64,000 nt of DNA, taken from contig JABAKD010000029.1 in assembly GCA_012845835.1 (NCBI GenBank), positions 14,312,392-14,376,391 of the forward strand, written 5' to 3'. Each line of letters starts with the position of its first letter. Position 1 is the stretch's first letter. This document shows positions 190 to 62,703 of this stretch, piece after piece. The position numbers and the translations under genes are program-made. The notes under the pieces are model-generated. The model did no database searches, was not told the origin of the DNA, and worked only from the letters and a program-made list of their open reading frames with translations. The DNA comes from Undaria pinnatifida (taxonomy: Eukaryota > Sar > Phaeophyceae > Laminariales > Alariaceae).

Positions 190-625
190 CATGACATGAT
201 GTGCGGTGCGATGCTGCAGATGTTCGCCTTGCCTCTCATTAAGTAGCGAACACCAAATACATCAGCCACGGGTTCGTTCTGTTCAACCGCTTCCCGATTT
301 TCTTCCTTGAAATGGGGCTGTACCATGCCATGCGGTGCGATGCAGGCGACGCCTCGCTTGAAGCTGCCGCAGGTACCGCAGCGGGCGGCGGTGGCCCTCC
401 CCCGTACTATTTGTAGTATATTTTGCCGCAAGATAGCTGTCTTGTTATATTCTTTACTGAACAGTAAAAAAGTACCGCAGACAAACAATGTGACAAAAAA
501 TGAAATACACCAGCTATCGTGAGTTATTTATGTTCAATCGCGATTTTTATGTACGAAGTATATGTAATTATTTCTTCCTTGAAATGGTGCGATGCGGCGA
601 GTGATCGCCATATATCATAGAAATC
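190..625 (+). repeat. Acceptor-side echoes of gene A exon 1
   Basis: Three degraded copies of the border at 740-830 lie here, near 196-240, 305-400 and 570-620. Each has the GTGCGATGC(G/T)GC core, then a GCC-T-CC stretch, and in the 305-400 copy also the 'TTGAAG..GCC..CC...TACCGCAG' continuation. No long reading frame is kept. No other gene is visible in bases 1-640. Confidence 0.6.
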
Positions 626-761
626 CCCAATTTTGTTGGTATGGCGATGGCGTCAACCACTGTGGGCTCGTTTAGTTTAATATTTTCCTCCTTTTGTTTT
701 ATCGTGTCTTTTTTATTTCTTGGTGTCGCGCGGCGCGGTGCTGTTCTGTGCGATGCGGCAG

Positions 762-1902
762 GTTATCGCCTCCCCCCTTTTGAAGTCGCCCCTGCCAGAG
801 CTACCGCAGAAACAGCCGATGCGCCTCCACGAACGCCTTCTCGGCGCTCTGGAGATAGCCGAGTCCCCGTACCAACAAAAGATACACGAGAAGATGCAGC
901 AGCAGCAGCAGCAACAACAGGAGCAGGAGCAGGAGCAACCACAGCAAAAGCAGCAACCAAAGCACCGACGGCTGAGCCAGGGAATGTCTCCCATCGGGAA
1001 GAACTATACGCAGGCCGTGTCCACAGGCGAGTTGTGTGTATGTTGTGTATGTCTGCGTGCCATTATTCCCTGTCTCCGACACAAGGTTAAGGTTGCTGTA
1101 CCCGGCCCCCCAAAGAGGATTCAAACGACGACGCGTATTTTCATGGCATCGCAATCACCCGTTTATCGTATTTCACCTCAAAAACTGTAGACGACCAATT
1201 TGTAATACCTGGTACGATCTACAAACATATCCGGTGTTGCTGTTTTTATTTGTGTATTGTGTGTATAATATGTGCTTCTTCCATGTTTCCACCACCAAGC
1301 CCTCGACAACAGGCCCACCCGTTACCGATTATTCGCGTCTTTACTGCTGTAGTGTACGAGCAATTTATAACATCTCCTGTGCCTACATATTTTCATTTCT
1401 GCCTTGTGTCCGCCCGTGTGCTGTTTGTATATTATTATAAAAAATGAAAATACACTCCAGCTGTGAGATCGAAGATTTCGTCGAAACTCCTCTTTGCAAG
1501 CTGTGTGTGATACTCCGATCGCGCGCATTACGAGTTGTGTGTCTTCATTAAGGATATAGGTCGGCGACTCCCCTTACAACTACAGTGTAGCTATCAGGGT
1601 CATAGAACATCTATAATGTCTCATGTTTCTCTTTTCGTTTCTGCCTTGTGCATGTCTGTGTGTGTGCTTCTTCCATGCCCCCGACACAAGGTTGCTTCTC
1701 TTCCATCAAGTGCGGCGGGACCGACGCGGGGTTTGGGGTGATAGACACATCGCCCGATTCAAGCGACAAGAGCGATCCCAGCCCTAGCCACAGCCAGCTG
1801 ATGGATGAGGGAGTGAGGAACAGCGTCCGCAAAGCCCTCTTCGCGCAAAAAATAGTGGCGGCGAGACCAAGTGCGAGACCAACGCCCGCTGGACCTGAGT
1901 GA
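762..1902 (+). CDS. Gene A: Gln-rich protein of unknown function, two visible exons
   Basis: I do not recognise this gene. Exon 1 (762-1035) follows GCGGCAG and opens with VIASPLLKSP. It contains a helical stretch (RLHERLLGALEIAESPYQQK), then a CAG-coded Gln/Glu run of about 25 residues, then a basic segment (PKHRRLSQGMSPIGKNY). It ends at GTGTATG in phase 1. Exon 2 (1691-1902) follows CCGACACAAG and starts in the matching phase. It is Ser/Asp-rich (DTSPDSSDKSDPSPSHS) and stops with TGA at 1900-1902. The matching phases and the acceptor echoes upstream of both exons support a real gene. The 5' end is not identified; a first exon may lie left of the window. Low-complexity Gln tracts also occur in non-coding DNA, so confidence is moderate. 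Confidence 0.45.
1036..1290 (+). repeat. Acceptor-side echoes of gene A exon 2
   Basis: The intron holds two partial copies of the sequence just before exon 2 (1645-1695). Around 1045-1095 there is a TGTATGTCTGCGTGCC...CCGACACAAGGTT copy, and around 1240-1280 a shorter one with TGTGCTTCTTCCATG. Both lie upstream of the exon they copy. Confidence 0.55.
1432..1606 (-). mobile_element. Retroposon R1, 5'-truncated copy
   Basis: This is a minus-oriented copy of the dispersed family whose 3' end reads AGCTTGCAAAGATGAG, then CTCACAGCTGGAGTGTATTT and an A/T-rich tail ending TATAA. Other copies are at 7000-8360, 20745-21785, 32545-32795 and 57700-57822. All share the 3' end and differ in 5' length, as in copies made by target-primed reverse transcription. 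Confidence 0.65.
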
Positions 1903-2874
1903 ATGATGACCGTTGGATAGGGGGATGGCGGTTGGATCTAGCAGATGACGGTTGGATCTGAGAGATGGCGGGTAGCTTTAGTCGTCTTTGTTAAGAAACC
2001 GAGGTGCTAATGAGGCTTGTTAAGAAGAAGTTCCCGTTCTTAAAGCCGCTATTAATAATGTGGCGTTTTTAAGAAATCCCCTTTCTTAAGAAGGCCTCTT
2101 TTTTTGTCATGGTCGGACAGGGGGGGAAGGAGGAGGGGGGGGGGTACCCGGGGAGGTTTAGTCGTCGAGGCGATATAGTTTTGTACATGGTGGTATTTTG
2201 GGGTTTCCTCACGGGTGGGGGCGCGGTGGGACGGTTTGGGTGAAAGTACGCCCAGCGACCCGGTATACGCCGTACTGCTAAATATAGCAGTGTTATTTGT
2301 AAATTGAGCGGAGTTAGCCGCGCATTCCTCTATTATTTATGGTGAGGGGGTGGTTGTTTTGGCTTGTATTTTGAATTTACAACTGGGGGAAACTGGGGTC
2401 GGGAGGGGCCACGAGGGAGGGGACCGGGGGGGGCACCGGGTGCATGAGGTATATAAGTATTTACAGCTGGTGGTTGATCGTTGTATTGGGTTTGGTTTTT
2501 GCGTTTGTCCCTTGTATTCTGTCTTTCGCGTCGATTTTTTGGCTGACATGCTTTAGTTTGCTGTGTGCGTGGAGTGTGCTTGGGGTGGGTTGAGCGAGCT
2601 TAGCGAGTGTGGAGTTTGTACCTGGTACATTATGTTTTTTTTATTGGTGTGGTGGTGGTGTTGGTGTTGATTGGCCATGTGGGTTTGTGTGAGTTGCGAA
2701 GACCGTGCTGCCTCGAGCCACTTGTCTTTTTTTTCCTGGTCTTCGTTTCGGGGGATGTGCTGTAGGCCTGACCGTGTGTGTAGCAGTTTGCTCCTTCTAA
2801 CTGCTGTGTGTACAGCGGTTTACTTATTGTTAACTGCTGTATGTGTGGAGCAGTTTGTTTTTACTTTACCAAAG
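1903..2874. other. Non-coding stretch, G/T-rich, no gene seen
   Basis: Between 1985 and 2105 there are several TTAAGAA/TTCTTAA motifs in both orientations. 2110-2450 is rich in long G runs, and 2575-2870 is T/G-rich with TGCTGTGTGT repeats. I see no supported gene. Confidence 0.6.
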
Positions 2875-6190: not shown

Positions 6191-6250
6191 ATAATTTTAT
6201 GAAACAGAATATATATATATGAAGAAAAAACAAGCTAAAATCGTACACTC

Positions 6251-6890: not shown

Positions 6891-6999
6891 TCTACATGAT
6901 TGTACCTATCGATTGAAATATTCTATCTTTCGATCCATGTACAATAACAAATGATGAAGCTTTTAACAACATAGTTTACTACACCTAAGAACTGGGTTG

Positions 7000-8614: not shown

Positions 8615-8845
8615 TGGTATAAGGCTTAGGTTGGGTAAGCTATTATTGGTTAACCTTTTGCAAGTGGTCAAACGGACTAATACCCCACTGATTCCTTAAC
8701 AAATGGCGTCGTCGACAGACCATGGGTTTGCTGAGTCGTGGGTTCGAATCCCACCATCCACAACACAATAAACTTTTCAGACTTTCCATGTCGAACTTGA
8801 AGAATACTCTCCCCGGTATCCCCAGGAAATGAAACCGCTTGGGTA
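8615..8845 (+). mobile_element. TRIM-like LTR element, incomplete copy 1
   Basis: A terminal repeat (8615-8701, 87 bp, ending CCTTAACA) is followed two bases later by a TGGCGTCGTCGACAG primer-binding-like site and then an internal block that is also found in the copies at 9527-9919 and 10639-11013. The expected 3' part is not next to it, so it looks broken. It is non-coding. It is an LTR-kin fossil, probably older than the copy at 10639. Confidence 0.6.
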
Positions 8846-9227
8846 TCGGTTTGCTTCCCCGGTTGATGAAAGTTAAAATTTAGAGATGTGGAACGACCTC
8901 TGGACCGGGGATGGGACCCTATATCCTCCCGAGGTGGAGCTGGCTCAACATACGAACCATATGATGACTACTCAGAAAATCTCCCGGTGGGGTTGGGATT
9001 TCCACACCGTGCGGAGAGGTATTAACCCGGATGATATCCGGGTTCGTCCCCGGGTTGTCGGAGTTTTTTGTAGATGTGTGTATGAATTCCAACCCCGGGA
9101 TGTGACCTTATCGTGCCCGGGTGACGCCTACTTTGTGTATGAATCCTGGCCGATGAGCGAGTATCAGACGATTTTTAAAAAAATAATTAGTCTACATGTT
9201 TTTTGTTTTCGTCTAAAAAAACTCGAG

Positions 9228-9509
9228 TCTGAAATTCTTCGCTGTCAAAATTGTAAGCGCTGTAGTCGCGTACTGTATGCACAACAAGTGAGCGATCTAC
9301 ACAACAAACAGCTAGCAACAAGCAGCAGCATTGCAACAGCATTCGAGGAGTTGAATGACGAAGGCAGCCATACCACCGTATTTCGCGCCTGGAACAACGT
9401 CAGCACGTCTCTCCACGATCAGACGACACACAGACAGTCGATCTGGGAGGCTCGGATCAAGATGATACTATTACATCATGCATTGTATATTTCAGAAGCT
9501 GGCTCAGTG
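9228..9509 (+). CDS. Exon-like segment, 94 codons, unidentified helical protein
   Basis: An open frame runs between a pyrimidine-rich TTTTTTGTTTTCGTC..GAG acceptor and a strong donor GTG|GTGAGT, phase 0 at both ends. It contains QLATSSSIATAFEELNDEGS and FRAWNNVSTSLHDQTTHRQS, a pattern like the helical arms of BAR-type proteins. I cannot assign a family. It lies between two TRIM-like copies, so it could be a host exon left in an intron-rich gene (possibly with the 3194-3310 exon) or a host fragment carried with an element. Confidence 0.3.
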
Positions 9510-9526
9510 GTGAGTGGCTACAGTAC

Positions 9527-9919
9527 TGTTATAAGGCTTAGTTTGGGTAAGCTACGAGTATTGGTTAACCTGTTGCAAGTGGTCAAACGGACTAATACCC
9601 CACTAATAACCTTAATAAATGGCGTCGTCGACAGACCATGGGTTTTTGGGTCGTGGGTTCGATCCCCACATCCACCATACATAATAATAAACATTTTCTA
9701 TTTTCCCCCATGGCGAACTTGAAAAATAATCTCCCCGGTATACCCAGGAAATGAAACGGCTTGGTTGGATATATTGACAGGTCCGCCCGTATATCCGGCC
9801 GACCTGCTACCCCGCCGTTTTAGGGGGGGAGAGTATTATAAGGCTTAGTTTGGGTAAGCTATTGGTTAACCTTTTTGCAAGTGGTCAAACGGACTAATAC
9901 CCCACTAATAACCTTAATA
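9527..9919 (+). mobile_element. TRIM-like LTR element, copy 2
   Basis: LTRs are at 9527-9617 (91 bp) and 9834-9919 (86 bp). After the 5' LTR comes TGGCGTCGTCGACAGACC (primer-binding-like). Just before the 3' LTR is a G-rich polypurine run (about 9822-9833). The interior holds a GGGTTCGAT/CCC tRNA-like arm and no coding frame. Flanking four-base sequences (GTAC / CTAC) only nearly match. It looks whole in layout. LTR-kin fossil. Confidence 0.7.
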
Positions 9920-10638
9920 CTACGAAGAGAACACGCAGCGCGGACATGGTCAGTCACCTTTCTTACTGGCCACGGATGCTTGATTGAGTAAAAGTATCAT
10001 AAGAAACGCACTCGACACGTTTCGTCGCCAGACTAAAGGGTCAGTCGGCGTGTGCTCGGATTTATCCGATCGAACTGCAAATTTTAATTATGAATGAAGC
10101 TCGGAATCGGATTTATTTTGAAAACGGTAGCTATTAGTCTAATCTAATGGTAGTACATTGTTATTATGATTGTGAGTCTATATCGAACTCTTGGCATTAC
10201 CTTACATACTGTACGCGCAGGCTATCTATGATTGATTGTGTGTGGTGACTTTTTTTACTCTACCACGTAGTAGTATTGAATCGAACAATTCGAAGTAAGT
10301 AAGTGCTGCCCTGCCCTACCCGAAGCATGGGTGCCGGCGAATGCCGGCACCTATGGCATGCGGAGCGCACCCATTCATGCGGAGTCCTTGTACTATATTA
10401 TACTCGTACTTTTTTACTGCTCTTTCTTGTTTCTGAAAATTCCTCGAAAAAAATCATTAAGCGGTAAACTAGGGAACCGCACGGCGACGCATATCGCTGG
10501 CGCTGAATTTACTATCACAGCAGTAGTCGTATTATAAACTTCGTATAATTATTTTTTAAAAAAAATGCGATACACCCTCGTTTTCCCCTGCTGCTATACT
10601 ATTATTATTATTATTGTTGTATTCTGTTTTGTGGAGAC
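9920..10638. other. Non-coding stretch with a short hairpin
   Basis: No gene is supported. At 10331-10350 there is a perfect palindrome with arms GTGCCGGC / GCCGGCAC and a GAAT loop. 10595-10615 is an ATT microsatellite. Confidence 0.5.
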
Positions 10639-11013
10639 TGTTAAGGTATTATTAGTGGGGTATTAGTCCGTTTGACCACTTGCAACTGGTTAACCAATAG
10701 CTTACCCAAACTAAGCCTTATAACACTCTCCCCCCCTTAAACGGCGGGATAGCAGGTCGGCCGGAGACACGGGCGGACCTGTCATTTACCCAAGCCGTTT
10801 CATTTCCTGGGGATACCAGGGAGAGTGTTTTTCAAGTTCGACATGGGGAAAGTCTGAAAAGTTTATTATTGTGGATGGTGGGGATCGAACCCACGACCCA
10901 AAAACCCATGGTCTGTCGACGACGCCATTTGTCAAAGTATTAGTGGGGTATTAGTCCGTTTGACCACTTGCAACTGGTTAACCAATAGCTTACCCAAATT
11001 AAGCCTTATAACA
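10639..11013 (-). mobile_element. TRIM-like LTR element, copy 3, whole layout with target duplication
   Basis: On the minus strand the order is LTR (11013-10930), two bases, TGGCGTCGTCGACAG (primer-binding-like), a 190-bp interior with a GTGGG/CCCAC tRNA-like arm, a purine run AAGGGGGGGAGAGTG, then the LTR (10725-10639). LTRs start TGTTATAAGG and end in CA. The four-base AGAC on both sides (10635-10638 and 11014-11017) is a target-site duplication. It is 375 bp and non-coding, hence a terminal-repeat retrotransposon in miniature. The two LTRs are close in sequence, so this copy is the youngest of the three. Confidence 0.75.
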
Positions 11014-15557: not shown

Positions 15558-17149
15558 GGAGCCCCGCCATTCAAAAAATGTTCCGGAAAAAAAAACTGAC
15601 TCTCTATATAATCAAAGCATACGTCCGTGTAGCACTTCCTACTTCCTGCCCCCAGCCCAGGCCCTCATCCACACGAAAAATGCCACTATTTAATAGGAGG
15701 AGCCCGCTATTTTGCGCGCCCGCGTCAAGGCCACTGTTGGCCTTCATATACTGGTTTTACTGTAGGGTCGATCAGTCAGTCAGAGGGTCAACCGCGATCT
15801 CCCGCAATATATATTGTCTTTCATGCTGGGGGGGGGCGGTATTTTTGTTTACTCAAGACCGCTTTTGGTCTCAATATACTAGGTTTAGCGTAGAAGGTGC
15901 GGTCAGTCAAGGAGTCAAACCGTGGTCTCCTATTACATTAACATCTACGAACGTGAGCATCCCCATGACACACTACCTGGAACACAATAATCGATCGTGT
16001 TTGAAACAACTCAAGAGCTGGCGCAACGGGCAAGGCAAAACAAAACAAAAAAAAACGCCCAATGCATGTCACAACACAAAAGACAAAACAAAATACAGCG
16101 CGGGGGGGAAGGTACTCATTTCATGCCGTAGTCTTCAGACCATAGCTATTAGACCCTCGCGTCCCTACTATGCCGGGACGGAGCACGTCGGGTTTTCACC
16201 GACCAGGCAGACATCGCGTGCACCAAGCACGAAGCGCCGTGAGGTGTTCGGCGAATCGCATGAAGGGTGAGCTGCATCCTACCAAGAACCACTCGGGGGG
16301 GGGGGGGAGCAAGACGTACATTTTGACTGACCGCGCTTGTCCCACGTACTATTGATATATTAATATGAATGTGCTACCAGGACATTGCTGCACCACTAGG
16401 TCGTGCCTTCACATGTTTTAGACCCCGAGCCACAAAAACAAACCCATGCACGGAAGCGCTGAGCGCGCACACGAGGGAGGCAAAGCGTGCTTGCTTGCTG
16501 CATCGCTGTATGATAGGTCATATTTGGCTCATAGACGCTGTTGCGGCTTGAGCAGACGCCGCCTCGGCCCGCCGTAACGCGGCCGCGCGCATTCTTTCCC
16601 TTCTGTCCGATAGCTCCCCCTGCCGGTCACCGCTGGGTGCTGCAGAGCCCCCCCCGGACCCCGCGAGAGACATGCCGGATCCTGTATATCAGTGTTGCAA
16701 AATTATAAAAATACGTCAGCTGTGAGTTCGACCAATACCGTCTGCTTCGAAGATGGGAAATTGAGGATTGACTACTGTTAACTCGTACGACTGTACACCG
16801 TTTGGATTGTTCATAGATATTCACTGTTAACTAACTCCAATATATATACTAAAACACCAACACCGAGATACCTTGCAGGCGGTGAGCATGCGCGCGGGGG
16901 CGGGTGGTCTTTTTGTTCGGTAACTGGGTTCAAACGGGGGCGCGGTAGGAAGTATTCCGGTCAAGAACAACATGAATTTTTAAACAGCGTAAGAGTCCAA
17001 TAGGCGCGGCAACAAATACACCGGCCAATAAAAATACCATTCACAGCTGGAGCGTATTGTAAAGTTAAAATAACAAGAAAAAAAAACAATCAGGTAGTGA
17101 AAAAGGCCGACATTTTTTATAACGATGCGCAGTCTGGTTACGATATTAT
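15558..17149. other. Non-coding stretch, repeats only
   Basis: 15722-15935 holds two more 'TTGGTCTCAATATACTAGG / GTCAAGGAGTCAAACCG' repeats. 16144-16310 matches 33540-33700. 16695-16735 and 17037-17065 are R1 tail fragments (CAGCTGTGAG; CACAGCTGGAGCGTATT). No gene is supported. Confidence 0.5.
16144..16310 (+). repeat. Dispersed repeat shared with 33540-33700
   Basis: TATTAGACCCTCGCGTCCCT, GGAGCACGTCGGGTTTTCAC and CGAAGCGCCGTGAGGTGTTC recur in the same order at 33540-33700. A fragment (ATAGACCCCCGCATCCCTAC) lies near 62120. Non-coding. Confidence 0.65.
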
Positions 17150-17402
17150 GATTGCGATATCCCAATTATGATATCCCGATGGTGATATCCTGGTCGTGAT
17201 GTCTTGATGACGACATCCTGATTGTGATCACATTCTGGTTCTGACTTGTGACGATCTGATTATATGATATCCGGACAGCAAAAAATCTGGTTGCGGTAGC
17301 CTGATCGTTAACACTGAGTGTGACATCGCACTTATGAGATCCTGATCGTGATACCCTATGAATGACCATTCCGATGACCATTCCGATGACCATTCCGATG
17401 AA
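17150..17402 (-). repeat. Imperfect minisatellite GATATCCTGGTCGTG and ATGACCATTCCG x3
   Basis: A degenerate unit of about 15 bp (GATATCC.GAT.GTG) repeats from 17150 to 17350, followed by three exact copies of ATGACCATTCCG. Open frames across it are repeat artefacts. Confidence 0.7.
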
Positions 17403-17965
17403 CAGTATCCTGATTGCACACCGGTGACCGTATACCGGTTGCGGTAGCACCCATTCCTTACCATACGAACAAAACAACAACCTGTAGAGCGGCACATTCG
17501 CCGTCGTCCCCACAACACACCTTGAAAGGCGTTTTTTATTTCGCACCCCCCCCCCCCCGCCCATCCTCTCCTGCTATGCTATACTGGCTATGCTATCCAT
17601 ATTGACCTCTTTGTCATAGTACCCACGTTTTGGGTAACAAAGCACTTTAAATTAGTGTGGGCTGAAGGGCTGAGATAAGAAATTCAAAGCCACCAGTGGA
17701 TCATCAATACACACATTCGAAGGCATTATGGATTCGTCCCCGCACTCCCCTCCCCTTACCCTCTCCTGCTTATGCGACACTGGTCACGCTATCTGTGTTA
17801 CGATAAGAACGAAAAAGAGAACAAAATCAACACCAAGCAGCGGGGCCATCAAACACACCTTGGAAGGCATTTTGGCTTCGTCCCCCAGCCGCCCCCCTTA
17901 CGGTCGCGGTCGACCTCCCAGGCGGCGCAACGACCGAGTATCCCGCGCTAGACGAACCCCTCCCG

Positions 17966-18468
17966 TCATTCACAGGGGCGTCTCCCAGCATACCCGGCGG
18001 CATCAGACAGGAGAACCAAGAGCCTGATTGTCAAAAGGGGTGGCGGTGTTATAGGGGGGAAAGGGGGAACGTTAGGGTTGGAGGAGGGGGGAAAGGGGGA
18101 AGACACTAGAAAACACCAACAGACAAAATAATTCCGTCGTAAGAAGTTCAAGAAACCGTTCCTCCGCCTCCGGCCCTCCCCCTCCTCCATCCCTCCTCCC
18201 CCCCCTGGCCTCCTCCTCCCCGCCCCCATTCCCTCTCGCAACCCCGCCTTCTCACCCATCCACGCGAGGCGGTTCACATATCCAGGGATAGGCTTCCCCA
18301 AGAGCTCCTCGCACAGAGCAGAGGCAAACGTGTTGCAATTTCGTGTCAGCACGTTGTAGCAGTCCGGCCCAAAGTCGTCCCTGAGCGAATCTATAGCCCG
18401 ACCCAAGGTCCCCGGCTCCCCCGAAAATGAGCCCATACTCAGCGCCTCTCTAAAACGAGCGCCGGGAG
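17966..18468 (-). CDS. DeSI exon C (catalytic Cys, C-terminal part)
   Basis: The acceptor AAAACCAG precedes 18468; the stop is at 17966-17968. The conserved part ends near 18255. The rest is low complexity (RRRPGGGGGMEEGEGRRRR) with a short hydrophobic patch and is of doubtful function. Confidence 0.85.
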
Positions 18469-20045
18469 CTGGTTTTCGGTTCGAAATGGCGTATTTTGGG
18501 GGGGCAGTGGGGTTGGGAAACGGACGGAGCGTTGGGAAGGAGAGGGAGACAGGGGGGGGGGGTTAAGCTTAGAAGAAAGCTAACACGAGAGGTGGGGGAA
18601 AAAAACGGACGTTATTATACGGCCCCCCAAAACGAGCACCGGGGGGTAGCCGGTTTTCGGTTCGAAAGGCGTTAGTTCGGGGGGAAGAGGGGTCGGGAAA
18701 AAGGACGGAGGGAGGGGGGGAGGGTGGAGGTTGACGCCTGTACAACCGGAAAACCGTTGTTGGGAAAAAATTACTTGGAATTAGTACAGGGAAGGGTGTC
18801 GGGGCTCTAAAGGGGTTAAGCTTGAGAGGGAAGCCGATTCAAACGATCGACAAACAAAACAGGCAAAAATATTCATATTTTTTTTTATTTTTACCGCCTC
18901 CTGGAGACTGTTTTCGGTTTCAGCGTTACTTAGGCGGGGTCGAGGGGTCGGGGAGTCAGACGGATGGGTGCACCAGTCCACAGAAGCATCGCTAATATCA
19001 AAAGATGAAACGAAACACCGTGCATACGAAGACTGTATGCCACGTAACAACGCAAGAGAGCACACGCCCTCTGTCGAATTTCCAAGCAGGTGTTCTCGAC
19101 AAACGAGGAGGATGCAAAAGCCGGAGCGACGCGTCGATGGAAAGATTTGACGACAGCGAGTGCTCAGACACAGCGTACGGTAGAGACACATCCTCGTTTT
19201 GTTCCCTGGAAGGTTCTTCGCTTTCTTAAGAAAAGCTCTATTGCCCACCCCCAAAAAACTGATTCCGAGACAAAACACGAAAGGCGAAAAACATGCAATT
19301 CGATGAGCAATCCCAGGTCCAACTGTATACGAGGTAAAACAAAAAAAATAACTGAAAAAAAAACAAAAACGAACATTTTGGGTAAATCTTTTTTCAAGAG
19401 CTCTACCCTCTATCGAAGAAGGCGTCAACAGCCATCGTTTTCCTTCGGGGTTTTCCCCCTGGACGTTTGGAGAACATCGCCTCCGAGAATTCATCCCGGG
19501 TTGTGCGTTATCCTACGCTAGGCGTGCAGCATCTTTTAAGATTTTTCGCAGCTCCTGCCACGAGGATCTCTGTATCTCACATCTCACCCGGACACATGAC
19601 TCCCAAAACATTCATTTGTTTGCGCAACGCGAACAACATGTCCATGCGCTAGACCTAAAACGACTATACTCGTAAAAAAAACCATACTGACCGATAGTTT
19701 CCACAGTTGAGCTAAAAACCGATCAGAAACGTTTCACGCGAAACGTTTAGCCCAATACTTCGAAGTAAGCCAATAAGAGCAACCCCTACCTACCGCCAGA
19801 TGCTTGAATAGTCTTTTATCTTGCCTGTCCCAGGGTATACGACCGTCACATGTACACGGCAGCATCAGTGTGTGCCGGAAATAAAACTTGAGGTCACCTT
19901 TTCGGGGGTCGTGGTCGAAGATTCCTCCCCCCCCGGCGAACGTGTACTCGCGCCCCCCGATCTCTAGGCCACTGTGGAAAACCCCAAGGCCGACGGGATG
20001 CCCGAACTCGTTGATCGGACTCAAGTCATAGACGTTGAGGACCAC
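17966..20045 (-). CDS. Desumoylating isopeptidase / PPPDE-domain cysteine peptidase (DeSI), 5' end missing
   Basis: PPPDE-domain proteins are papain-like thiol peptidases that remove SUMO or ubiquitin from substrates. Exon B (20045-19898) gives VVLNVYDLSPINEFGHPVGL, then GVFHSGLEIGGREYTFAGG with the catalytic His in FHSG, and ends DHDPRK in phase 1. Exon C (18468-17966) follows AAAACCAG, completes the codon and reads PGARFREALSMGSF, then YNVLTRNCNTFASALCEELL with the catalytic Cys in NCN, then GKPIPGYVNRLAWMG. Joined, they cover the conserved domain from its first strand to the last helix. After it comes a Gly/Arg-rich C-terminal extension of about 100 residues and a stop. That tail may instead be spliced further. 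The starting exon, upstream of 20045 on the minus strand, was not found. Decayed copies of both acceptor borders lie in the introns. Confidence 0.9.
18610..18960 (-). repeat. Acceptor-side echoes of DeSI exon C
   Basis: 18616-18675 repeats the exon C border (minus strand: TTTCGAACCGAAAACC, then GGTGCTCGTTTTG where the exon has GGCGCTCGTTTTAG). A weaker copy at about 18900-18960 keeps GTTTTCGGTTTCAGCG. A TTAA MITE (18731-18819) sits between them. Confidence 0.6.
18731..18819 (+). mobile_element. 89-bp TTAA MITE, copy 3
   Basis: Left end TTGACGCCTGTACAACCGGA, right end GGCTCTAAAGGGGTTAA, interior TTACTTGGAATTAGTACAGG. Length 89 bp. It lies in the DeSI intron. Confidence 0.7.
19898..20045 (-). 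CDS. DeSI exon B (catalytic His)
   Basis: Acceptor TTTATTGAACAG before 20045 and donor CGAAAAG|GTGACC after 19898. 148 bp, 49 codons plus one base. Contains FHSGLEIGGREYTF. Confidence 0.9.
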
Positions 20046-20164
20046 CTGTTCAATAAAAAATAAAAAAGAAAGGTAAACGTCGAGCGATGCATTAAGAACC
20101 ATTAACACAGAAGTAATTTTTCACTTTCACTTTCGACTCTCCAGCTAAACTCTGATTTGATTTT

Positions 20165-20270
20165 ACCCTCAGCGATCGTCTGGACAAGCCGGACAAGCCG
20201 CGGTCAAAGGAGTCTTCCCTTCTATCCCCTGGCACGTGCCTTCGTTTTCATCGCGCACAGGGTTCAGTAA
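20165..20270 (-). mobile_element. SINE-B body fragment
   Basis: GACAAGCCGCGGTCAAAGGA, CATCGCGCACAGGGTTCAGT and neighbouring bases match 33255-33345 of the SINE-B copy. It lies upstream of DeSI exon B. Confidence 0.55.
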
Positions 20271-20340
20271 TTACGGTCCAGCATTCCCACCTTTCAGTTT
20301 TTCACGCAGGTCGATGTTCATCGAACTTGAACAATTAACA

Positions 20341-20710
20341 GGCCACTGAGGCCGATATGATGCCCGAGGTCGCTGACAAGGACGAGGTCCTACTTCGACG
20401 TAAAAGTCCAGGACCTCCTGATTTGCACCACTGAGGGTGAAACGTCCAACGCAAAATAGAACCACTGATGGGAGGCATACGCGAGTCGACAAGGACACAA
20501 ACTGCCGAACACTTCTCGCGTTCCAAAAAGAGAGGGCATGTGCGTTATAACTTTTTCACACCAAAAAAAGAAGGCATGCAACGCGCCCGATGAGATACCG
20601 GAACCCCTTGACAGGGTTCGTTTCATGAACGTTGAGGACCGCCTGCTTTTCTAAATGAGTGTTAAACGTCCAACGCTAAACAGGACTATTGATAGGAGGC
20701 AGACTTACAG
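20341..20710 (-). repeat. Two acceptor-side echoes of DeSI exon B
   Basis: On the minus strand, copy 1 (about 20425-20345) has AATCAG then EVLDFYVEVG in place of VVLNVYDLSP. Copy 2 (about 20655-20585) has AAAGCAG then AVLNVHETNPVKGFRYLIGR in place of VVLNVYDLSPINEFGHPVGL. Both keep an AG acceptor and are about 234 bp apart. The intronic sequence next to each (AACGTCCAACGC..TGAT.GGAGGCA) is also shared, so the repeated unit spans intron and exon. Confidence 0.75.
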
Positions 20711-20744
20711 CTTACAACAGCGGAATAGGAGCACTGTTGCAATA

Positions 20745-21785
20745 TTATATATACCCCCCAACGCCCCCTCCTTCCCCACCACCCGCACGATCGCCCAGAC
20801 CTAAAATAGCACCACGCGTGTAGCAAGCCCCTACATATATGCGTAATACGCGCGATCGGAGTATCACACACAGCTTGCAAAGATGAGTTTCGACAAAACC
20901 TTCGATCTCACAGCTTGAGTGTATTTATATTTTTATAACATATGTGACCTAAACCAGTTGAAAACCCTCCCCCCCCCGCCCCCCTCCCCCCATTTTTTTT
21001 TTTTCCCCCCGCTCCCTCTTGCTCAAACGCCCCACCTAGCATCCAAATCTGCCAAAGCAATAAACACTTCCACGCACTTGATATCACCTCATTATCTTTC
21101 TAGAGCCATCCATGACGCTGCTTCAATTCATCACCCCCCCCCCCCCCAACGCCCCCTCCTTCCCCATCACCCGCACCATCGCCTAGACCTAGCACCACGC
21201 GTAAAGCAAACCTCTACATCTATGCGACCTAAAGCTGTTTGAAAAAACCCTTTCGCCCCCCCCCCCCCCCCCCCCCCACCCCCCCCCCCACCCCCTCGAA
21301 CACTCCGCCCTCTCCTCACTGATTGTACGACTTACAGGATATACATGATAAACTGATGCATTCTTCGCAAAACCGTCAGATTTATCCTCTTGAAGGGTTT
21401 ATAATTTCCTCGCACAAATTGAGTTGCCCGCCCCCCCGCCGCTGCTTCCTCTTGATCAAACCCAGGCCCCCACGTCCTTAAAAACTCCGCCCTCCCCTCA
21501 CCGGTTCATCGACTTACAGGATTCACAACTGATGCACTTCCTTCCACAGCTGTCAGAAGTTGTCCCCCTCAAAAACGGGTTTTATATTTCGCACAGACTG
21601 ACTAACATCACCCTGTTGACCCTGATCGCTATACTGTAGTCCCAAGGGGTGTCACCAACCTATATCCTTAATGAGGGCACACAACCCGTAATACGCACGA
21701 TCGGAGTATCACACACAGCTTGCAAAGATGAGTTTCGACAAAATCTTCGATCTCACAGCTGGAGTGTATTCTAATGTTTTATAAC
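20745..21785 (+). mobile_element. Retroposon R1, long copy (two 3' ends)
   Basis: It repeats the layout of 7000-8360: C-runs, AATAAACACTTCCACGC, ATCTTTCTAGAGCCATCCATG, then ACCCTGATCGCTATACTGTAG and the R1 3' end at 21715-21785. A second 3' end at 20868-20935 suggests one copy inserted beside or into another. No coding frame. Confidence 0.55.
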
Positions 21786-21856
21786 ACACAGGATACATTA
21801 GGTGTCCTCGAGTAAGATGGTGGTGTGGTGTGCTATACATTATAGAGAGCGATGGG

Positions 21857-21994
21857 ACCGCCTTATTGGGGGAAGCCGCCTTGTTCATTCCAGGTTATGA
21901 GTACGATTCCCCAGTCACACCAAGCGATTTTGACCGCCTTATATCGGGATACCGCACTCTACTCCGACGGCGTCATTGGGGGACCCCTACTCTG
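21857..21994 (-). mobile_element. CAGT-ended MITE (AAGGCGG family), copy 2
   Basis: CCGCCTTATTGGGGGAAGCC..GACCGCCTTATATCGGGATA..ATTGGGGGACCCCTACT. It ends just before the candidate ATCase first exon and so may have supplied part of its 5' flank. Confidence 0.7.
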
Positions 21995-22021
21995 TTGCCG
22001 ATAGTATTCACCCTTTCCTTC

Positions 22022-22138
22022 ATGGGAGAAAACGACGAAAGTGAATTCCATGATTTTCTAGCATCGGCCACTCAAAACAGCCTCCCCCCGGCTGCTGGGC
22101 AAGATGATGGCAGGTTTGCCGTCCGAGCCGCGGTGCAA
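22022..22138 (+). CDS. Probable first coding exon of the ATCase gene
   Basis: ATG at 22022 opens 39 codons (MGENDESEFHDFLASATQ..DGRFAVRAAVQ) ending at a CAA|GTGAGG donor in phase 0, which fits the phase-0 start of the exon at 25955. There is no hydrophobic signal or ASAFAP motif, so plastid targeting is not indicated. The link to ATCase rests on phase and position only. It could belong to a separate gene. Confidence 0.35.
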
Positions 22139-23351
22139 GTGAGGAGCTTTACGAGCTGTACGATGCTATCATACTACTACCGCTGCGCGTTCGTACTGGA
22201 CTAGACGGTGAACAGGACCGACCACATTTCTGTTCGTGTCATTTGTATTCGATACATACCAGAGCCCGATCAGGCTTGATGATACGTTAATACTAATATT
22301 AGACTGCCTGGCAGGTTTGCGTTGCTGGGTACGGTGTACGGCGTGATGCTGCAGCCGTGTCTCTGGACGACGTATGACATACATAATATAACATTTGTGT
22401 ACCGGTATGATACGTGTAGCTGCAGTCTGCACACACACAACTCTGCAAATACACACCGTATGAGCCGAACGTTTACTGCGCATGCCCGCAGTGACATTTT
22501 CTGGATTGTCTCTCAGTCATGCTACGAGTATACCATACACAGGATATCAGGGTAGCTTCCAAATTTTCGACAAAAAAAAAAAAAAAATCGACAAAAAAAA
22601 AAAAAATGTTGTCTATGGCTGACCGGCGATTTGCGGTGGTCTACCCTCAAATGTAGAGGGCATGTGTTCAAGGCGCTTGGTGCTTGGTCGAGGGCAGCTA
22701 ATTATTATACCCGTGGTGAGTTAGTTTGGAGGGCCCACAACCGGGTGGGCCCAAGTCTGTGTGGGATGAGGGTGTCAACCTGGAGTGTAAGCATGTGTTG
22801 TGTGAGTTTGTTTACCAATGAACCACCCCGAAACATCAGGCGTAGACAAGGGAACGGGTTTTTTCGAATACAAGACGCGGGTAAGCGGAAAGCTCTCGTA
22901 TAGGTTTGCTGATTGTCTGCTATGGCATGACGTACAGCATCGAACACATGGCTCTGTTGTCGATCTGCTCATGGTATGCTGTCTGTCGGCTACGCTGTGT
23001 TCTGTAGGGTATCGTATCATATGCCGTATATTGTTAGAAATCATAAAGAGGTCTGCAGTCTGTACTGGTTATAGCCTGTAACGATGTTCCAGTCTGGGAA
23101 TGGTATGATGACATGTGTTACGTTTCACTGCCGCTGCTGTCCTGGGGTAGCTGACACATTGAGACTTAAGTCCTTGTAATGTACTTGAACAATATTGACT
23201 GGGATTGCGTGCCCTCGGCTTACATCTACGACGTACTCTGTGGGATACTATAATACGAAGTACGACATAGTAGTAGTAGGCACAAAAACAAACGAAAATC
23301 TTGCTCAGGGGGGTAGAACATCTCTGGGGTTTAACGATACACCTGGCAACA

Positions 23352-23540
23352 CAGTAGGGGTCCCTCAATAAGGCGGTATCCCCATATAAGGCGGTATCCC
23401 GATACTTCAGTATAAGGCGGTCAAAATCGCTTGGCGCGACCATGAAAGTGCGCATAACGTGGACTGAATAAGGCGCATTTCCATTATAAGGCGGTCATAT
23501 TGCTCTGGCACACAACCGTCTCACTGGGGGATCCCTACTG
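23352..23540 (+). mobile_element. CAGT-ended MITE (AAGGCGG family), copy 3
   Basis: Starts CAGTAGGGGTCCCTCAATAA and ends GGGGGATCCCTACTG, inverted to each other. 189 bp. Interior ATAAGGCGGTCAAAATCGCT..GCACACAACCG as in the other copies. Confidence 0.75.
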
Positions 23541-25189
23541 TATCCTATATATCGTATAAGATAGCAGCGGCGCGAGGGGTACGACAGCACTACAGATGGT
23601 GCCCGTTCTCACGAAATTCAGTCATAGTAATAAATCGAGGGTCGTTCCTCGCGATGAAGAAAATTGACTGAAGAGTAAAAACGTGCTCAGGGTCGGGTGC
23701 TATAAATCCCACTCAACTTCTTGCAATAGCCAATACCGGTACAGATGTGGTAGCATGTGCTCAACGCTCAATGGCGGTGACGAAGCAAGAAATTGAGCCC
23801 CGACGCCTGACGGGGCCCATGAACAGCGACTAGAAAAACGACGACTGCGATCTTATCGAGCGTTTACAGTAGGAGGGTTTACAGTTGGAGGGGCGTGTAG
23901 CGGGACGAGTACGATGTATAATCTTAGCATCCTACGATACACGCGTGTCGCATAGCCCTTTACGTTGAAATTATTAATAGCTTAATAGGACACATTCCCC
24001 ATGATATCCCGCCTTATCAGTCCGGGCAGCTTCGTGTGGTCGATGACGATGACTAATCGTTTAAAATTAGGCGAAACTGTCACAGTAGCCAATGAGCGTA
24101 ATCTGGGTTTTGCGTCGCGGAAGAACGGACAGCAGTACGAGTCCAGGTGTTTGATGACTTAGACATGGAGAAGCTGAACCGCGTCGGAGCAGCCTTTTCT
24201 CGAGCCAACCAGAGCAGGAGCACGGACCCACCAACGGGGAAGTGGACGCCAACATAGTAGGTAGACAAGCAAAGCTATACCGAAATCAGCCAGACAACCG
24301 CTGAGCGTCTAGCCGATAGTTTCGCATCCCTTTTTTCGTCACGCCTTCCCAATTGAACCCCCGCAAGGGGTGAGTTAACAAATTGACGTTTCTTGCATGC
24401 TCAACCAGACTACGAATATACCAACCAAACGGGGAGCGCCTTCTGTATGCACACAGCAGTAGTATTAATACTGCAGCTATGCAGGACACCTTTAGACTAT
24501 GTATTAGAAAAATAAGAACAATAAATACTGAAATACTGACATACCGGTAGGCTGGGTTTCCTTGTTGGGCGAGGGCGCGTTGTACATTATATTCAGTACA
24601 CCACAATCGCGCCCGGGGTACTTCGTCCCTGTACAGATGCCCGCCTTTCCTTTGCCCTGTTCCGTATTTGGTGTCCTGTTCTGTATCTCAGGTAGGTACG
24701 TATCAAGTATCCCAGGCACGTACGTATCAGGTATCTATATCTATTCCAGATACGCGTCAGGTACCTATCCCAGGTACACCAAAATAGGAACCAGGGCAAA
24801 AGGAAAAGGCAGGCTGATATCAACAGGAATACGTACAATAAATCCTTTAGCCGTTATACTGCAGTTTGTGTAGCACCCTCACCAAAACAAGAAACCCAGC
24901 CCAGGCGTAGGTTCTTCTATTTCTTACAAAAAAAAATGGTCCTGTATCGCTTGCTGCAGTCGTACCATATATCGCACTCAGTACATCAGTACATGGTCAT
25001 AGGCAGCGGTTGGGGGGAGATGCAGGGCGTTTATGATACGACACGCCGCCGCACTATACGGATACCATCAGAAAGCGTGGCAGATACGAGCAGCGTACAA
25101 GGGTAACCAGATACCAGGCACACCCGTTTCCAAGCCATCAGCCATCGTCGTGGAAACCAAACGTGGCATCACGCCAAATCGAGCGCAGA

Positions 25190-25373
25190 AGTAGCAGGGG
25201 TCCCCCAGTAAGGCGGTTGTGTGCCAGCAGAGCATTATGAACGCCTTATAGAGGGAGGCCACCATATTCATTCCGGTTTATGAGTGAAGCTCCCCAGCGG
25301 TGCTCGCGATTATGACCGCATTATATCGGGATAACGCCTTACTCAAACCGCCTTATTGGTGGATCCCCTACTG
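25190..25373 (+). mobile_element. CAGT-ended MITE (AAGGCGG family), copy 4
   Basis: Starts AGTAGCAGGGGTCCCCCAGT, ends CTTATTGGTGGATCCCCTAC. About 184 bp, same interior motifs. Confidence 0.7.
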
Positions 25374-25954
25374 CACAAGAAAACGAGAAGAAAACAGCCT
25401 TTCGACTTCCGACGGGGGTCAAACGCAAAAAAAAGGCAACGAAAAAGGGCACATAAAGAGCATGATCCTTTCGGTATAAAAGGGGAGAAACGCAGTGCCT
25501 AGAATATCGGATGGGGAGGTAACCCGCAGCCGGACTAACGTAGAAGAGTTGCCCTGACATCGAGGCTGCTGTGCTCCGTGTAGCGTTGGCCTGTATGGTG
25601 CTTGCCCAATCAAGACCGCACCCATGCGGGGAATTCGTTGATTGACTGAATGAAAAATATACTGGGAGAGAAAAACCACACACCCTGCTTCCTTTCCAAC
25701 AACTCACCTCGGTTGGGCTTGCTTTCCGACCGTACATGGTTCTTCTTGCTTGGTGCAGGAGAGAACGTGCCGGAGGTTTAGAGGGAGGGAGAGAGAGGGA
25801 GGGAGATTTGGTGCAAGCGTGCTTGCTGCTGGTACAAAATTAAACCGGCGACCGGCGGGGTCGGTATATTTGGTTTGTTATAGATGCCAAGGCATGTTAA
25901 AAAATCTGATTCCCATCATCCGTCCCCTCAAATGCGGCGCAATTACAAGCTGAG

Positions 25955-26122
25955 GACAGAGACACGGACACACAGCAGCAACAGCCGCAGCAGCAGAAGC
26001 AGCTACACGTCCGCAACATCCTTGCTTCCGCACAAATTTTATCCATGGCAGCTGTGTATGAGGGTTCTCCGGTTTCGGCTGCGGTTGCAGAGGCCCGAAC
26101 GCAGAAAGCAGACCTCAACATG
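25955..26122 (+). CDS. Probable ATCase exon 2 (N-terminal extension)
   Basis: Open 56-codon frame between AAGCTGAG and a good donor AACATG|GTGAGC, phase 0 at both ends. It reads DTQQQQPQQQKQLHVRNILA then MAAVYEGSPVSAAVAEARTQ. Its phase fits the first conserved ATCase exon at 27638. An internal ATG at 26045 could also be the true start. The sequence itself is not conserved in ATCases that I know. Confidence 0.5.
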
Positions 26123-27637
26123 GTGAGCAGGCATTGATCTCAAATGAAGCTCGTCGTTGTTTTTTGCCAAGTATATCAAGTCTAATTTCAAGTTGTTTGC
26201 CGCGCAAACTTGCCTCCTCCGCTATCGATGATCTGTGTAGTACAACATGGCGACTACACTGCTGTCGTCCCGGCTCATCTCACACTGCGTGCATGACTTG
26301 TCTTGTCTTGTGGTGATAGTCTAGCCATCTAGATCTAAATCTAGACAGATCTACCCGACCTTTCGTTGATCGTGAGGATAACGCGGGGTAGGTTCTGCGC
26401 TGCACTGAGTACTCCGGGCGGCGCAGCGTGGAGGGAAAATATTGCGTCAACAACGTCAACCATTCCTACGTACGTGCGTACCTGGTAGGTACCACTTTGG
26501 ACGGAAATGTAACGACGATTGATACAATACGAGGAGTATACAACCGGTTATTACTTTTCCGTGCAGGGTGATACTGGTAGTTCTCTTCATCGAGCTTAGC
26601 TTTTGGTGGGTGGGCTCGCGCAGAGCTTGGAGCTGGGTGGTGAAAATTATTGCGGCACGAGTGAACGCGTGACAATCGGTGTTTCTCGGTTGCAAGTCGT
26701 ATGTCTTGGTTGAACTTTTTCAACTTAACTCGTCGATTTTGAAAAATTTACGGCAAGCACACACAATATCCTTGGAATTTACTGTAGCTCAATACGTACA
26801 GTATGCACATAAGTGTCGCAGAGCCGACCATGCAAGGCCAAGCATGGAGTCGCCGACGCATGTGCCATTAGCGTGCTCGACAGCAGTTCGCATGAATTAA
26901 GAGACGGCGATGGCGAGGTGAACCTGCAAGCCGCGCTCGACACTCCTCGTTCGTCGTCAGGAGCTTGAACTAGTTTACCGCTGGAATGCATGCGATTGCA
27001 AGATACCCAACACACACGTTTATGATTCAACTAAAGTGCAACCTTCACGACCCCGACCCCGACCCCGAGCCCGACCCCGCCTCCGACTCCGATCCCGACC
27101 CGGATCCCGATCCCGAACCTAACAGATAAACCCCAGCCCTGACCACGGCCATGAACCACGAACTACGAACACGATCACGACCCCGAACCCAACCCGAATA
27201 TCAAGCCCAAACCCTAAACCCCAAATCCGAACCCAACCCAACCCTAAGCCTAACCATGTCCCCAACCCCGACCCTAACCCCAACCCTGCTCCCGACCACG
27301 AGTCAGGATCAACGACCCCGACCACGATCCCAACCTCACCCTGACCCCACCTTGACCCCAACCCGAACGCCAACGGGAACCACCACCCCAACCCCAAACC
27401 CAAACCCAACTGGAATCATGACCCAAACTGGAACCACAACCCCAGCCCTAAATTCCAACCCCAACGCCAAACCCAACTGTAATCCCAACCCTAACCCAAC
27501 CCTAACCCTAACCCCAACCCTAACCCCAACCCCAACCCTAACCCCAACCCCAACCCTGACCCCAACCCCAACCCTAGTGCCAACCCCAACCCAAACCTCA
27601 ACCCCAACCCTAACCCTAATCCTGACCTAACGATCAG
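26123..27637 (+). other. ATCase intron ending in a telomere-like array
   Basis: 26123-27030 shows no gene. 27040-27637 is a degenerate CCCGAC / CCCAAC / CCCTAA array, listed separately. Confidence 0.5.
27040..27632 (+). repeat. Telomere-like CCCTAA/CCCAAC/CCCGAC array
   Basis: It begins with CCCGAC units, then mixes CCCAAC, CCCTAA and CCTGAC. The stretch 27490-27620 has many exact AACCCTAACCC runs, the complement of the TTAGGG telomere repeat. It stops only a few bases before the ATCase exon at 27638. A short GGGTTAGGG remnant sits at about 27915. Confidence 0.8.
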
Positions 27638-36439
<8,802 letters not shown>

Positions 36440-39136: not shown

Positions 39137-39624
39137 CAGTAGCGGTCCCTCAACATGGCGGTTCGAATAAGGCGGCATCCCGATACAAGGTGGTCAAAAT
39201 CGCGAGACACGACTGGGGAAGGAATTGCACTCTTAACCTGGAGTGAATAAGGCAGCCTCCCCCAATAAGGCGGTCCTATTGCTCTCGCACTGCGTGCGGC
39301 CTTATTGGTAACCTGGACTGAATAAGGCGTCTTCCCCCAGTAAGGCGGTCCCATCGCTCTCGCACGCACCACAACCGCCTTGTTGGTGACCTGGATTGAA
39401 TAAGGCGGCTTCCCTCAATAAGGCGGTCCTATTGCTCTCGCACACAACCGCCTTATTGGTAACCTGGAGTGAATAAGGCGACTTCCCCCAATAAGGCGGT
39501 TCTATTGCTCTCTCACCCTACGTACAGCCTTATTGGTGACCTGGAGTGAATAAGGCGGCTTCCCCCAATAAGGCGGTCCTATTGTTCTCGCACACCACTG
39601 CCTTATTGGGGGACCCCTATATAG
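39137..39624 (+). mobile_element. CAGT-ended MITE (AAGGCGG family), copy 5, with internal tandem growth
   Basis: It starts CAGTAGCGGTCCCTCAACAT and ends CCTTATTGGGGGACCCCTAT. Inside, a unit of about 75 bp (GTGAATAAGGCGGCTTCCCC, AATAAGGCGGTCCTATTGCT, GCCTTATTGGTAACCTGGA) repeats five times, so this copy is about 490 bp against about 190 bp elsewhere. CAGT-starting ends with a TA target fit the pogo/Tc1-mariner group by resemblance only. Confidence 0.75.
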
Positions 39625-40857: not shown

Positions 40858-41695
40858 TTCCGCAAAAATTCACATGCCAAGTAGTTTGTTCCCAAAAACA
40901 TGGGTGCAGCTTGAACGGGGTCATTCATGCTCGAGGCAAAATTCCCACTCCGCGCCCAACTACAAGAACAATCGTAACATAAAAACCACGCCATACACCA
41001 CTCGATGAACCACCCGATATACCACGTGCGTTCCCTATATAGAGGCAAAACAACCCTCGCCCCCCGCCCCCCCCCCCTCCCTCCCGCCACCAACTCTCAA
41101 CAAAAACACCCTGCACCAAAACTATGTGAGGGTTGGTGCGAGGTTCAGCTTTTTACCCTTTTTCCTACAACAAAAGGCATGCTACTCTATTACCAGGTAG
41201 TTTTGGGCCGAAAAAAAGAAGGGTGCCGCTGAAATGGGTTAAACCCCCATGGCGAACGGTGCCCGTCCTCGCTTCAGCCCGTGGCCACCACGGTCATAGC
41301 ATCTCCGGGTACACTCTTGTCTCTCGCTCGCTCCCTCTCATTATCTTCCTCTCTCTCCCCAGCCCGTTTTCTCTCTCCTCCTCTCCCCCTCCTCGTCAAC
41401 ATCTCTCTCCACCCCCCCCCACGCCCCGCCTACCCCTCTCTCCCCCCCCCCCCCCTAAGATTCCTCTCTCCCTCCCTCCCACCGCTGCCACCATTGCCGC
41501 TATTGATGCTCGCACCAATTCCTCTCCTCAACACTTTCACTACCGGAAAACGATTCCATACTATTGCCAAGTAGTTTCCACCCAAAAAGGCGTCGGTGCA
41601 GTTACAAACGAGTTGCCGTTCGTCCGGAGTAACAAAAGCAGCCGCGGCCGCCAAGTAGTTTCCACCCAAAAAGCGTCGGTGCGGTTACAAAAGAG
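40858..41695. other. Region after the coiled-coil gene stop, C-rich, with a border duplication
   Basis: 41563-41745 holds two copies of about 86 bp (AAGTAGTTTCCACCCAAAAA, then GCGTCGGTGC, CGTCCGGAGT, AGCCGCGGCCGCCA) across the stop of the coiled-coil gene. 41320-41480 is a CTCTC/C-run tract. A long plus-strand frame across this area is antisense to the gene and low complexity. Confidence 0.55.

Positions 41696-62703
<21,008 letters not shown>

What the first reader, a model, noticed from the sequence alone, without database searches (positions are those of the whole stretch)
190..62460. Exon borders are repeated in adjacent introns across four genes, with a fixed polarity
At least ten exons in four genes (gene A, DeSI, ATCase, the coiled-coil gene) have one to three decayed copies of a splice border nearby. 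A copy of an acceptor border plus 30-100 bases of exon always lies upstream in the direction of transcription. A copy of a donor border lies downstream. The copies share intronic bases too and often have 150-250 bp spacing. This is what tandem duplication of a segment spanning an exon-intron border would leave: the outermost copy stays attached to the exon, the inner ones become intron. It suggests a recurrent duplication process that lengthens introns in this genome, and a source of new alternative exons. I know of no named family or mechanism that matches.
Basis: partly seen in the sequence, partly recalled or inferred. Interest (0 to 1): 0.92.

Follow-up and report, generated by a model that had tools for sequence, protein, structure and literature searches.

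The report
Kelp introns grow from exon copies
In the kelp Undaria, decayed copies of exon ends lie in the neighbouring introns, in our blind tests only on the side where splicing can skip them; they are most likely left by ordinary short tandem duplications, which would lengthen introns without changing the protein.

Summary
The window lies in a 511 Mb genome that I identify as the kelp Undaria pinnatifida. I rebuilt three genes (ATCase exactly as published, DeSI, a coiled-coil gene). After masking, 14 of 47 exon borders have a same-strand copy on the permitted side (acceptor copies upstream, donor copies downstream), 1 of 47 on the other side; one of the 14 is low complexity. A test fixed in advance on 55 chaperonin-family exons elsewhere gave 11 of 110 permitted hits, 0 of 110 reverse and 0 of 220 inverted. 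Plain intron probes there hit as often (69 of 780 one-sided), and 119 of 123 local repeat pairs are direct. So this genome probably makes many 100-600 bp tandem duplications, and those crossing a border survive in one orientation because only then can splicing skip the extra copy (inferred). Copies decay like intron; I found no sign of use as exons, though no RNA was available. The 181-194 bp spacing in this window did not recur. It is a replicated case of a known kind, tandem duplication inside genes, with intron growth as outcome.

The parts
26045..36439 (+). ATCase gene, 8 exons: 26045-26122, 27638-27786, 28827-28986, 31709-31921, 32366-32500, 34240-34365, 34947-35102, 36386-36439
   Evidence: the one splice solution printed that gives P0001 (Undpi1, HiC_scaffold_29.g13198) exactly
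16518..25737 (-). DeSI/PPPDE gene, 5 exons: 25737-25708, 20045-19898, 18468-18256, 18023-17859, 16681-16518
   Evidence: complete ORF, Pfam C97, Ectocarpus homologue P0122
41705..62673 (-). coiled-coil gene, 14 exons; exons 6-14 have an Ectocarpus homologue (P0121), exons 1-5 rest on frame and phase; donor of exon 4 and the exact end of exon 14 not resolved
31308..31603 (+). two copies of the acceptor border of ATCase exon 4 (31709), upstream
   Evidence: copy borders 31330 and 31524, exon part 65/76 and 70/79 identical
29107..29516 (+). two copies of the donor border of ATCase exon 3 (28986), downstream
27957..27993 (+). weak copy of the donor border of ATCase exon 2, downstream
   Evidence: z 5.6, 37 bases, 81%
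20334..20702 (-). two copies of the acceptor border of DeSI exon 2 (20045), upstream (ends approximate)
18601..18687 (-). copy of the acceptor border of DeSI exon 3 (18468), upstream
   Evidence: z 14.2
17480..17765 (-). two copies of the donor border of DeSI exon 4 (17859), downstream (ends approximate)
61970..62423 (-). three copies of the acceptor border of coiled-coil exon 2 (61475), upstream
58713..59001 (-). two copies of the acceptor border of coiled-coil exon 4 (58524), upstream
55581..55679 (-). copy of the donor border of coiled-coil exon 5, downstream
   Evidence: z 26.6
50856..50916 (-). weak copy of the acceptor border of coiled-coil exon 9 (50688), upstream
   Evidence: z 5.1
48925..49153 (-). 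two copies of the acceptor end of coiled-coil exon 10 (48793), upstream; the farther one does not span the border
46561..46671 (-). copy of the acceptor border of coiled-coil exon 12 (46451), upstream
   Evidence: z 18.0
45713..46251 (-). two copies of the donor end of coiled-coil exon 12 (46321), downstream; the farther one does not span the border
162..402 (+). two copies of the gene A acceptor border at 762, upstream
   Evidence: z 8.9 for the best one; alignments
1043..1299 (+). two copies of the gene A acceptor border at 1691, upstream
   Evidence: z 5.8 for the best one; alignments

Best explanation
The copies are most likely remains of ordinary local tandem duplications of about 100-600 bp; local direct repeats of that spacing are common in the sampled parts of this kelp genome, and some of them span an exon-intron border. 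After such an event the protein stays unchanged only if splicing uses the outermost copy, the one joined to the rest of the exon. The inner copy, with its exon piece, then becomes intron and decays, and the intron is longer by one unit. That fixes the polarity without any polar mechanism: acceptor copies end up upstream and donor copies downstream, while the reverse would change the protein and is lost. Shown: the copies, their strand and side, direct local repeats far above inverted ones, and decay. Inferred: the duplication step itself, the loss of reverse cases by selection, and neutrality of the copies. Exon-anchored copies probably also stay recognisable longer, because one partner is held by selection.
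For: Window: 14 of 47 permitted, 1 of 47 opposite, 0 of 47 on each inverted side. Replication with a design written down first, on the 55 of 57 listed chaperonin-family exon matches that were at least 100 nt long, in 10 regions on 6 contigs: permitted 4 of 55 (5' ends upstream) and 7 of 55 (3' ends downstream); reverse 0 of 55 and 0 of 55; inverted 0 of 220. From z>=4 to z>=8 permitted hits go from 12 to 8 and reverse hits stay 0; one inverted hit appears at z>=4. The same design in the window: 11 of 36 permitted, 0 of 36 reverse, 0 of 72 inverted; one of the 11 is a duplication at the 3' end of the last coiled-coil exon, not a splice border. Local repeat pairs with lag under 1 kb are 119 direct to 4 inverted in 157.5 kb, covering 10.3% of bases. 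Copies include intron bases, and in four families two copies end at nearly the same exon base: +79/+76, +46/+45, +52/+53, -104/-103. In exonic triplets the true exon has the fewest private changes: 34 against 70 and 66, 53 against 80 and 128 with MAFFT. Mismatch by codon position is 0.189, 0.188, 0.265, flatter than I would expect of a conserved exon. Simulated visibility of exon-anchored pairs is 1.64 times that of intron pairs.
Against: Not all families show the whole tandem unit: the predicted intron part is significant at p<=0.004 in 6 of 13, at p<0.03 in 2 more, and not in 5; beyond 40 nt from the border it is significant (p<0.05) in only 3 of 12 tested. In four other families the copies end at different exon bases (coiled-coil 2: +43, +78, +78; DeSI 2: +80, +66; DeSI 4: -49, -39; coiled-coil 12 donor: -67, -82). 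The triplet pattern is not proof of slow exons: the intron bases beside the border show it too (18 against 53 and 44, hand sum), which points to splice-site constraint or to the copies having been aligned to the true border. Border families are denser in this window than one-sided intron probes (14 of 47 against 56 of 656, p 6e-5); for 13 of 30 local duplications crossing a border with 190 bp units, p is 0.0017 without and 0.12 with a two-fold visibility gain, and 0.016 with it for 125 bp units (the 17 non-border loci were grouped by hand; a gain of 1.64 was not put through this test). Six of ten replication regions had no hit. No RNA data and no second species were available.
Confidence: 0.85

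Rival explanations
1. A border-specific or unit-specific duplication process: something about exon borders, such as a nucleosome-length unit of about 187 bp, makes duplications there more likely.
For: In the window 8 of 13 families have their nearest copy at 181-194 bp (0 of 20,000 simulated sets as tight; 11 strong families p 0.002), against 2 of 22 hand-sorted non-border lags in 175-195. Beyond the self-overlapping bins the stacked profile is highest at 160-220 bp on the permitted side and flat on the other. Non-echo introns show 1.8% at 180-200 bp against 10 of 47 borders. Borders are richer than intron in this window.
Against: Replication: 0 of 11 permitted hits has a lag of 175-195 (one further hit at z 4.8 has 183). 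Local direct lags in 157.5 kb are broad, 6.0 per 10 bp at 175-195 against 4.7 and 3.0 beside it. Border rate equals one-sided intron rate there.
Confidence: 0.07
2. The copies are tandemly duplicated, alternatively used exons or splice sites.
For: 8 of 22 copies have neither stop nor frameshifting gap and 13 of 20 spanning copies keep AG or GT. Alternatively used duplicated exons are known in other genes (U2AF1, listing).
Against: None of the 22 listed copies carries both splice sites of an exon; 14 of 22 are broken; codon positions differ almost evenly; the published ATCase protein skips them. No RNA was tested.
Confidence: 0.03
3. The pattern is chance, low complexity or assembly error.
For: The window is rich in tandem repeats (72 TRF rows); the ATCase exon 2 acceptor, coiled-coil exon 7 donor and exon 14 acceptor hits were low complexity or vanished on masking.
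Against: Shuffled, reverse-complement and opposite-side controls are near zero after masking. The copies are well diverged from the exon (exon parts about 67-89% identical), too much for an assembly duplication.
Confidence: 0.02
4. Mobile elements, such as introners or captured exon pieces, carried the copies.
For: Dispersed repeats do occur in these introns, and half of the Undaria assembly is masked as repeats.
Against: Copies match the adjacent exon, on the same strand, within about 1 kb, most with its intron bases; inverted local pairs are 4 against 119 direct. I did not look for terminal repeats or target duplications around the copies.
Confidence: 0.03

Closest known systems
Tandem genomic duplication across an intron-exon boundary, potato RdRp gene (PMC4974935, passages read)
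   Same: Tandem duplication of the 3' end of an intron plus the 5' end of the next exon; the extra copy is handled by splicing.
   Different: In potato one recent event made a new intron. Here many decayed copies lie in existing introns, both acceptor and donor borders are involved, and no new intron was seen.
Internal gene duplication (Gao and Lynch 2009; seen only as cited in PMC4974935, paper not held) and the AGGT duplication model of Rogers 1989 (as described there)
   Same: Duplication within a gene, with splice sites in the duplicated stretch.
   Different: The Rogers model explains intron birth from exon; this is intron growth by turning exon ends into intron.
Tandem exon duplication with mutually exclusive splicing (recalled)
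   Same: Local same-strand copies of exon sequence in introns.
   Different: Here one exon end is copied, with one splice site, and most copies are broken.
Introners (PMC9860276, passages read)
   Same: Change intron content on a genomic scale.
   Different: Introners are dispersed elements; these are local copies of the neighbouring exon.

Membership tests
Tandem genomic / internal gene duplication | copies lie close by in the same orientation | tested here: met
   119 direct to 4 inverted pairs; border copies at z>=5 on the same strand only after masking
Tandem genomic / internal gene duplication | duplicated stretch carries exon and intron bases across the border | tested here: met
   20 of the 22 listed copies span the border
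Tandem genomic / internal gene duplication | copies abut head to tail (homology fills the whole unit) | tested here: inconclusive
   predicted intron part significant at p<=0.004 in 6 of 13, at p<0.03 in 2, absent in 5; blastn pairs as long as their lag for ATCase 3 and 4, though ATCase 3 is among the 5
Intron gain by tandem duplication | a new intron appears | tested here: not met
   in the ATCase, DeSI and coiled-coil models the copies lie inside introns of the model; whether those introns are old was not tested
Mutually exclusive duplicated exons | whole exon copied with both splice sites and open frame | tested here: not met
   exon part 22-104 bases, one border only; 14 of 22 broken
Mutually exclusive duplicated exons | copies used in mRNA | not testable with these tools
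   no RNA reads; only the published ATCase protein, which skips them
Introners | intron made of a dispersed element unrelated to the neighbouring exon | tested here: not met
   copies match the adjacent exon and its border; dispersal of the copies was not searched
Nucleosome-length (satellite-like) tandem units | unit length fixed near 180-190 bp | tested here: not met
   seen in the window but 0 of 11 in the replication, broad lags

The most novel reading that the evidence does not exclude
Kelps carry an unusually active 100-600 bp tandem-duplication process that works as a one-way ratchet: each border-crossing event turns an exon end into intron, so their introns keep a readable fossil record of their own growth, and this explains a substantial part of why kelp introns are longer than those of Ectocarpus.
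Probability: 0.35. Interest if true: 0.72.

Novelty: new variant of a known kind. Interest (0 to 1): 0.5.

Why it matters
Longer introns are usually credited to mobile elements (recalled). Here the exon serves as a yardstick that shows, copy by copy, growth by local duplication and the filter that splicing would impose on it. That makes the rate, size range and age of intron-lengthening events measurable, and it warns annotators that exon-like pieces in kelp introns can be relics. Published mean intron lengths are 1,057 or 1,203 bp in Saccharina against about 703 bp in Ectocarpus, and local duplication is a candidate cause for the difference.

Tried and rejected
Spacing near 187 bp: looked strong in the window, then failed in the replication and in the lag spectrum. 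Border enrichment: present in this window, absent in the replication, so I do not claim it. Exon part against intron part identity: the gap was small (about 78% against 75%, my hand sum of 20 rows), and triplets of intron bases beside the border show the same bias as exonic ones (hand sum), so slower change of the exon side is only indicated. Rows dropped before counting: self-matches at d 0; further weak or distant rows for ATCase 3 and 4, DeSI 3, coiled-coil 9 and 10 (scores 85-133); and all rows for the coiled-coil exon 7 donor and exon 9 donor. The exon 7 donor copy at 53023 vanished on masking; the exon 9 donor scored z 4.5 and z 6.2 in the other design. A scan of viral contigs for ATCase gave no relative. 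Protein searches named no Undaria protein for DeSI or the coiled-coil gene; one unnamed frame, P0169, is 98% identical over DeSI exon 3. No related brown algal DNA was reached, so age and conservation of the copies are untested. Literature: in the listings I saw no title or abstract start reporting border copies in brown algal introns; these are keyword searches of open papers with capped lists.

Full report
What the window is. Spliced exons read from the window match an annotated protein at 100% over all 267 query residues; the source names it Undpi1, HiC_scaffold_29.g13198. That Undpi1 means Undaria pinnatifida is recalled; the genome that holds the window has 511,146,479 bases, close to the 511,280,173 of the published Undaria scaffolds (passages). 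My search printed one splice solution that reproduces the 356-residue protein, with 8 exons. DeSI has 5 exons and a complete frame. The coiled-coil gene has 14 exons; exons 6-14 match an Ectocarpus protein, exons 1-5 rest on frame and phase only, and the donor of exon 4 was not resolved and not tested.

Is the pattern real? For 47 borders I aligned a border probe to the flanks, with dinucleotide shuffles as null. Masked result at z>=5: 14 of 47 on the permitted side, 1 of 47 on the opposite side, 0 of 47 on each inverted side (unmasked version: 16, 1 and 1, inverted tested on the permitted side only). The opposite-side hit is the exon part of that exon's own donor copy. I discard one of the 14 as C-rich, leaving 13 families at 12 of 27 exons; two are weak. 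Gene A adds two acceptors.

Anatomy. The 22 copies that I list carry 22-104 exon bases, 20 of them with intron bases across the border, and none carries both borders of an exon. In four families two copies end at nearly the same exon base, for example +79 and +76 in ATCase exon 4 and +52 and +53 in coiled-coil exon 10. I infer for these that one duplication was followed by expansion of the array. In four other families the ends differ (coiled-coil 2, DeSI 2, DeSI 4, coiled-coil 12 donor). For 6 of 13 families the intron part predicted for a tandem unit is significant at p<=0.004, for 2 more at p<0.03, and for 5 it is not; beyond 40 nt from the border it is significant at p<0.05 in 3 of 12.

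Decay. Of 22 listed copies, 14 have a stop or a frameshifting gap and 8 have neither; 13 of 20 spanning copies keep AG or GT. Mismatch rates at codon positions 1, 2 and 3 are 0.189, 0.188 and 0.265. In triplets of exon and two copies, private changes are fewest in the true exon: 34 against 70 and 66 (copies were aligned to the exon, which favours this), and 53 against 80 and 128 with MAFFT. In both counts the family with three copies enters three times. Intron bases beside the border show the same bias (18 against 53 and 44, hand sum). So the copies decay like intron, and a slower exon is indicated rather than proven.

Is it special to borders? In the window, 53 of 328 random intron probes have a same-strand copy on either side (23 upstream, 33 downstream) and 27 of 328 an inverted one; some of these probes are the border copies themselves. 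A random 190 bp duplication would cross a border in 18.7% of placements, and exon-anchored pairs stay visible 1.64 times as long in a simulation. Against 13 border families and 17 non-border loci (grouped by hand), that gives p 0.0017 without and 0.12 with a two-fold visibility gain.

Replication. With the genome briefly reachable I listed 57 exon matches of the chaperonin family PF00118, fetched 20 stretches (157.5 kb in 10 regions), wrote the test down and ran it on the 55 matches of at least 100 nt. Permitted: 4 of 55 and 7 of 55. Reverse polarity: 0 of 55 and 0 of 55. Inverted: 0 of 220. Ten of 55 exons, in four of ten regions, have a copy. Five of the hits were displayed, and their matches run past the edge of the exon match into flanking bases. 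In the same regions 55 of 390 plain intron probes have a local same-strand copy on either side (38 upstream, 31 downstream) and 9 of 390 an inverted one. Thus permitted exon ends (11 of 110) equal one-sided intron probes (69 of 780, p 0.72), and the reverse cells are depleted (0 of 110, p 0.00016). The window, at 11 of 36 in the same design, is richer than the rest, as one expects of a window picked for this feature.

Spacing. Nearest copies in the window cluster at 181-194 bp in 8 of 13 families, and a stacked profile agrees. The replication gives lags of 94 to 559 with 0 of 11 in 175-195, and local direct pairs there spread over 100-600 bp. I treat the cluster as local.

Explanation. Local direct repeats are common here: 119 direct against 4 inverted pairs under 1 kb, covering 10.3% of 157.5 kb. 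I read them as tandem duplications. When a unit spans a border, only use of the outer splice site keeps the message, so the inner copy becomes intron. Selection against the reverse case and neutrality of the inner copy are inferred. The span from border to farthest copy in the 13 families sums by hand to about 5.1 kb of about 35.4 kb of intron, an upper figure because it includes whatever else lies between.

Known or new. The potato RdRp case shows a tandem duplication across an intron-exon boundary that made an intron, and the paper cites internal gene duplication as commonly observed (passages). What appears new here, within the searches named under tried and rejected, is the outcome (growth of existing introns), its frequency, both border types, and a polarity test fixed in advance in a brown alga. 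Kelp introns are reported longer than Ectocarpus introns (passages). I rate this a new variant of a known kind.

Noticed in passing
25738-26044: DeSI (minus) and ATCase (plus) start codons lie about 307 bp apart, back to back, so they may share a two-way promoter.
   Followed up: no
39234-39609: A 73-75 bp tandem array (ATAAGGCGG family); many of the best-scoring of its 60 listed relatives (1,936 candidates) lie on one other contig, C25, roughly 5.5-12.6 Mb, as a satellite-rich region might.
   Followed up: partly
57720-57880: A palindromic, MITE-like element read by eye; related ends (CTCCAGCTGTGAGATCGAA) recur in the window, for example near 1450, 8320, 20900 and 21750.
   Followed up: no
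41566-41736: A tandem duplication of about 84 bp (91% alike; TRF gives period 83) at the end of the last coiled-coil exon, partly in coding sequence.
   Followed up: no
27206-27616: Degenerate CCCTAAC/CCCAAC arrays, telomere-like, just before ATCase exon 2; they made a false border hit before masking.
   Followed up: partly
51001-51261: A 65-copy AGCA array, 96% uniform, inside a coiled-coil intron.
   Followed up: no
8615-11013: A repeat with direct and inverted copies about 85-99% alike, probably a recent mobile element.
   Followed up: no
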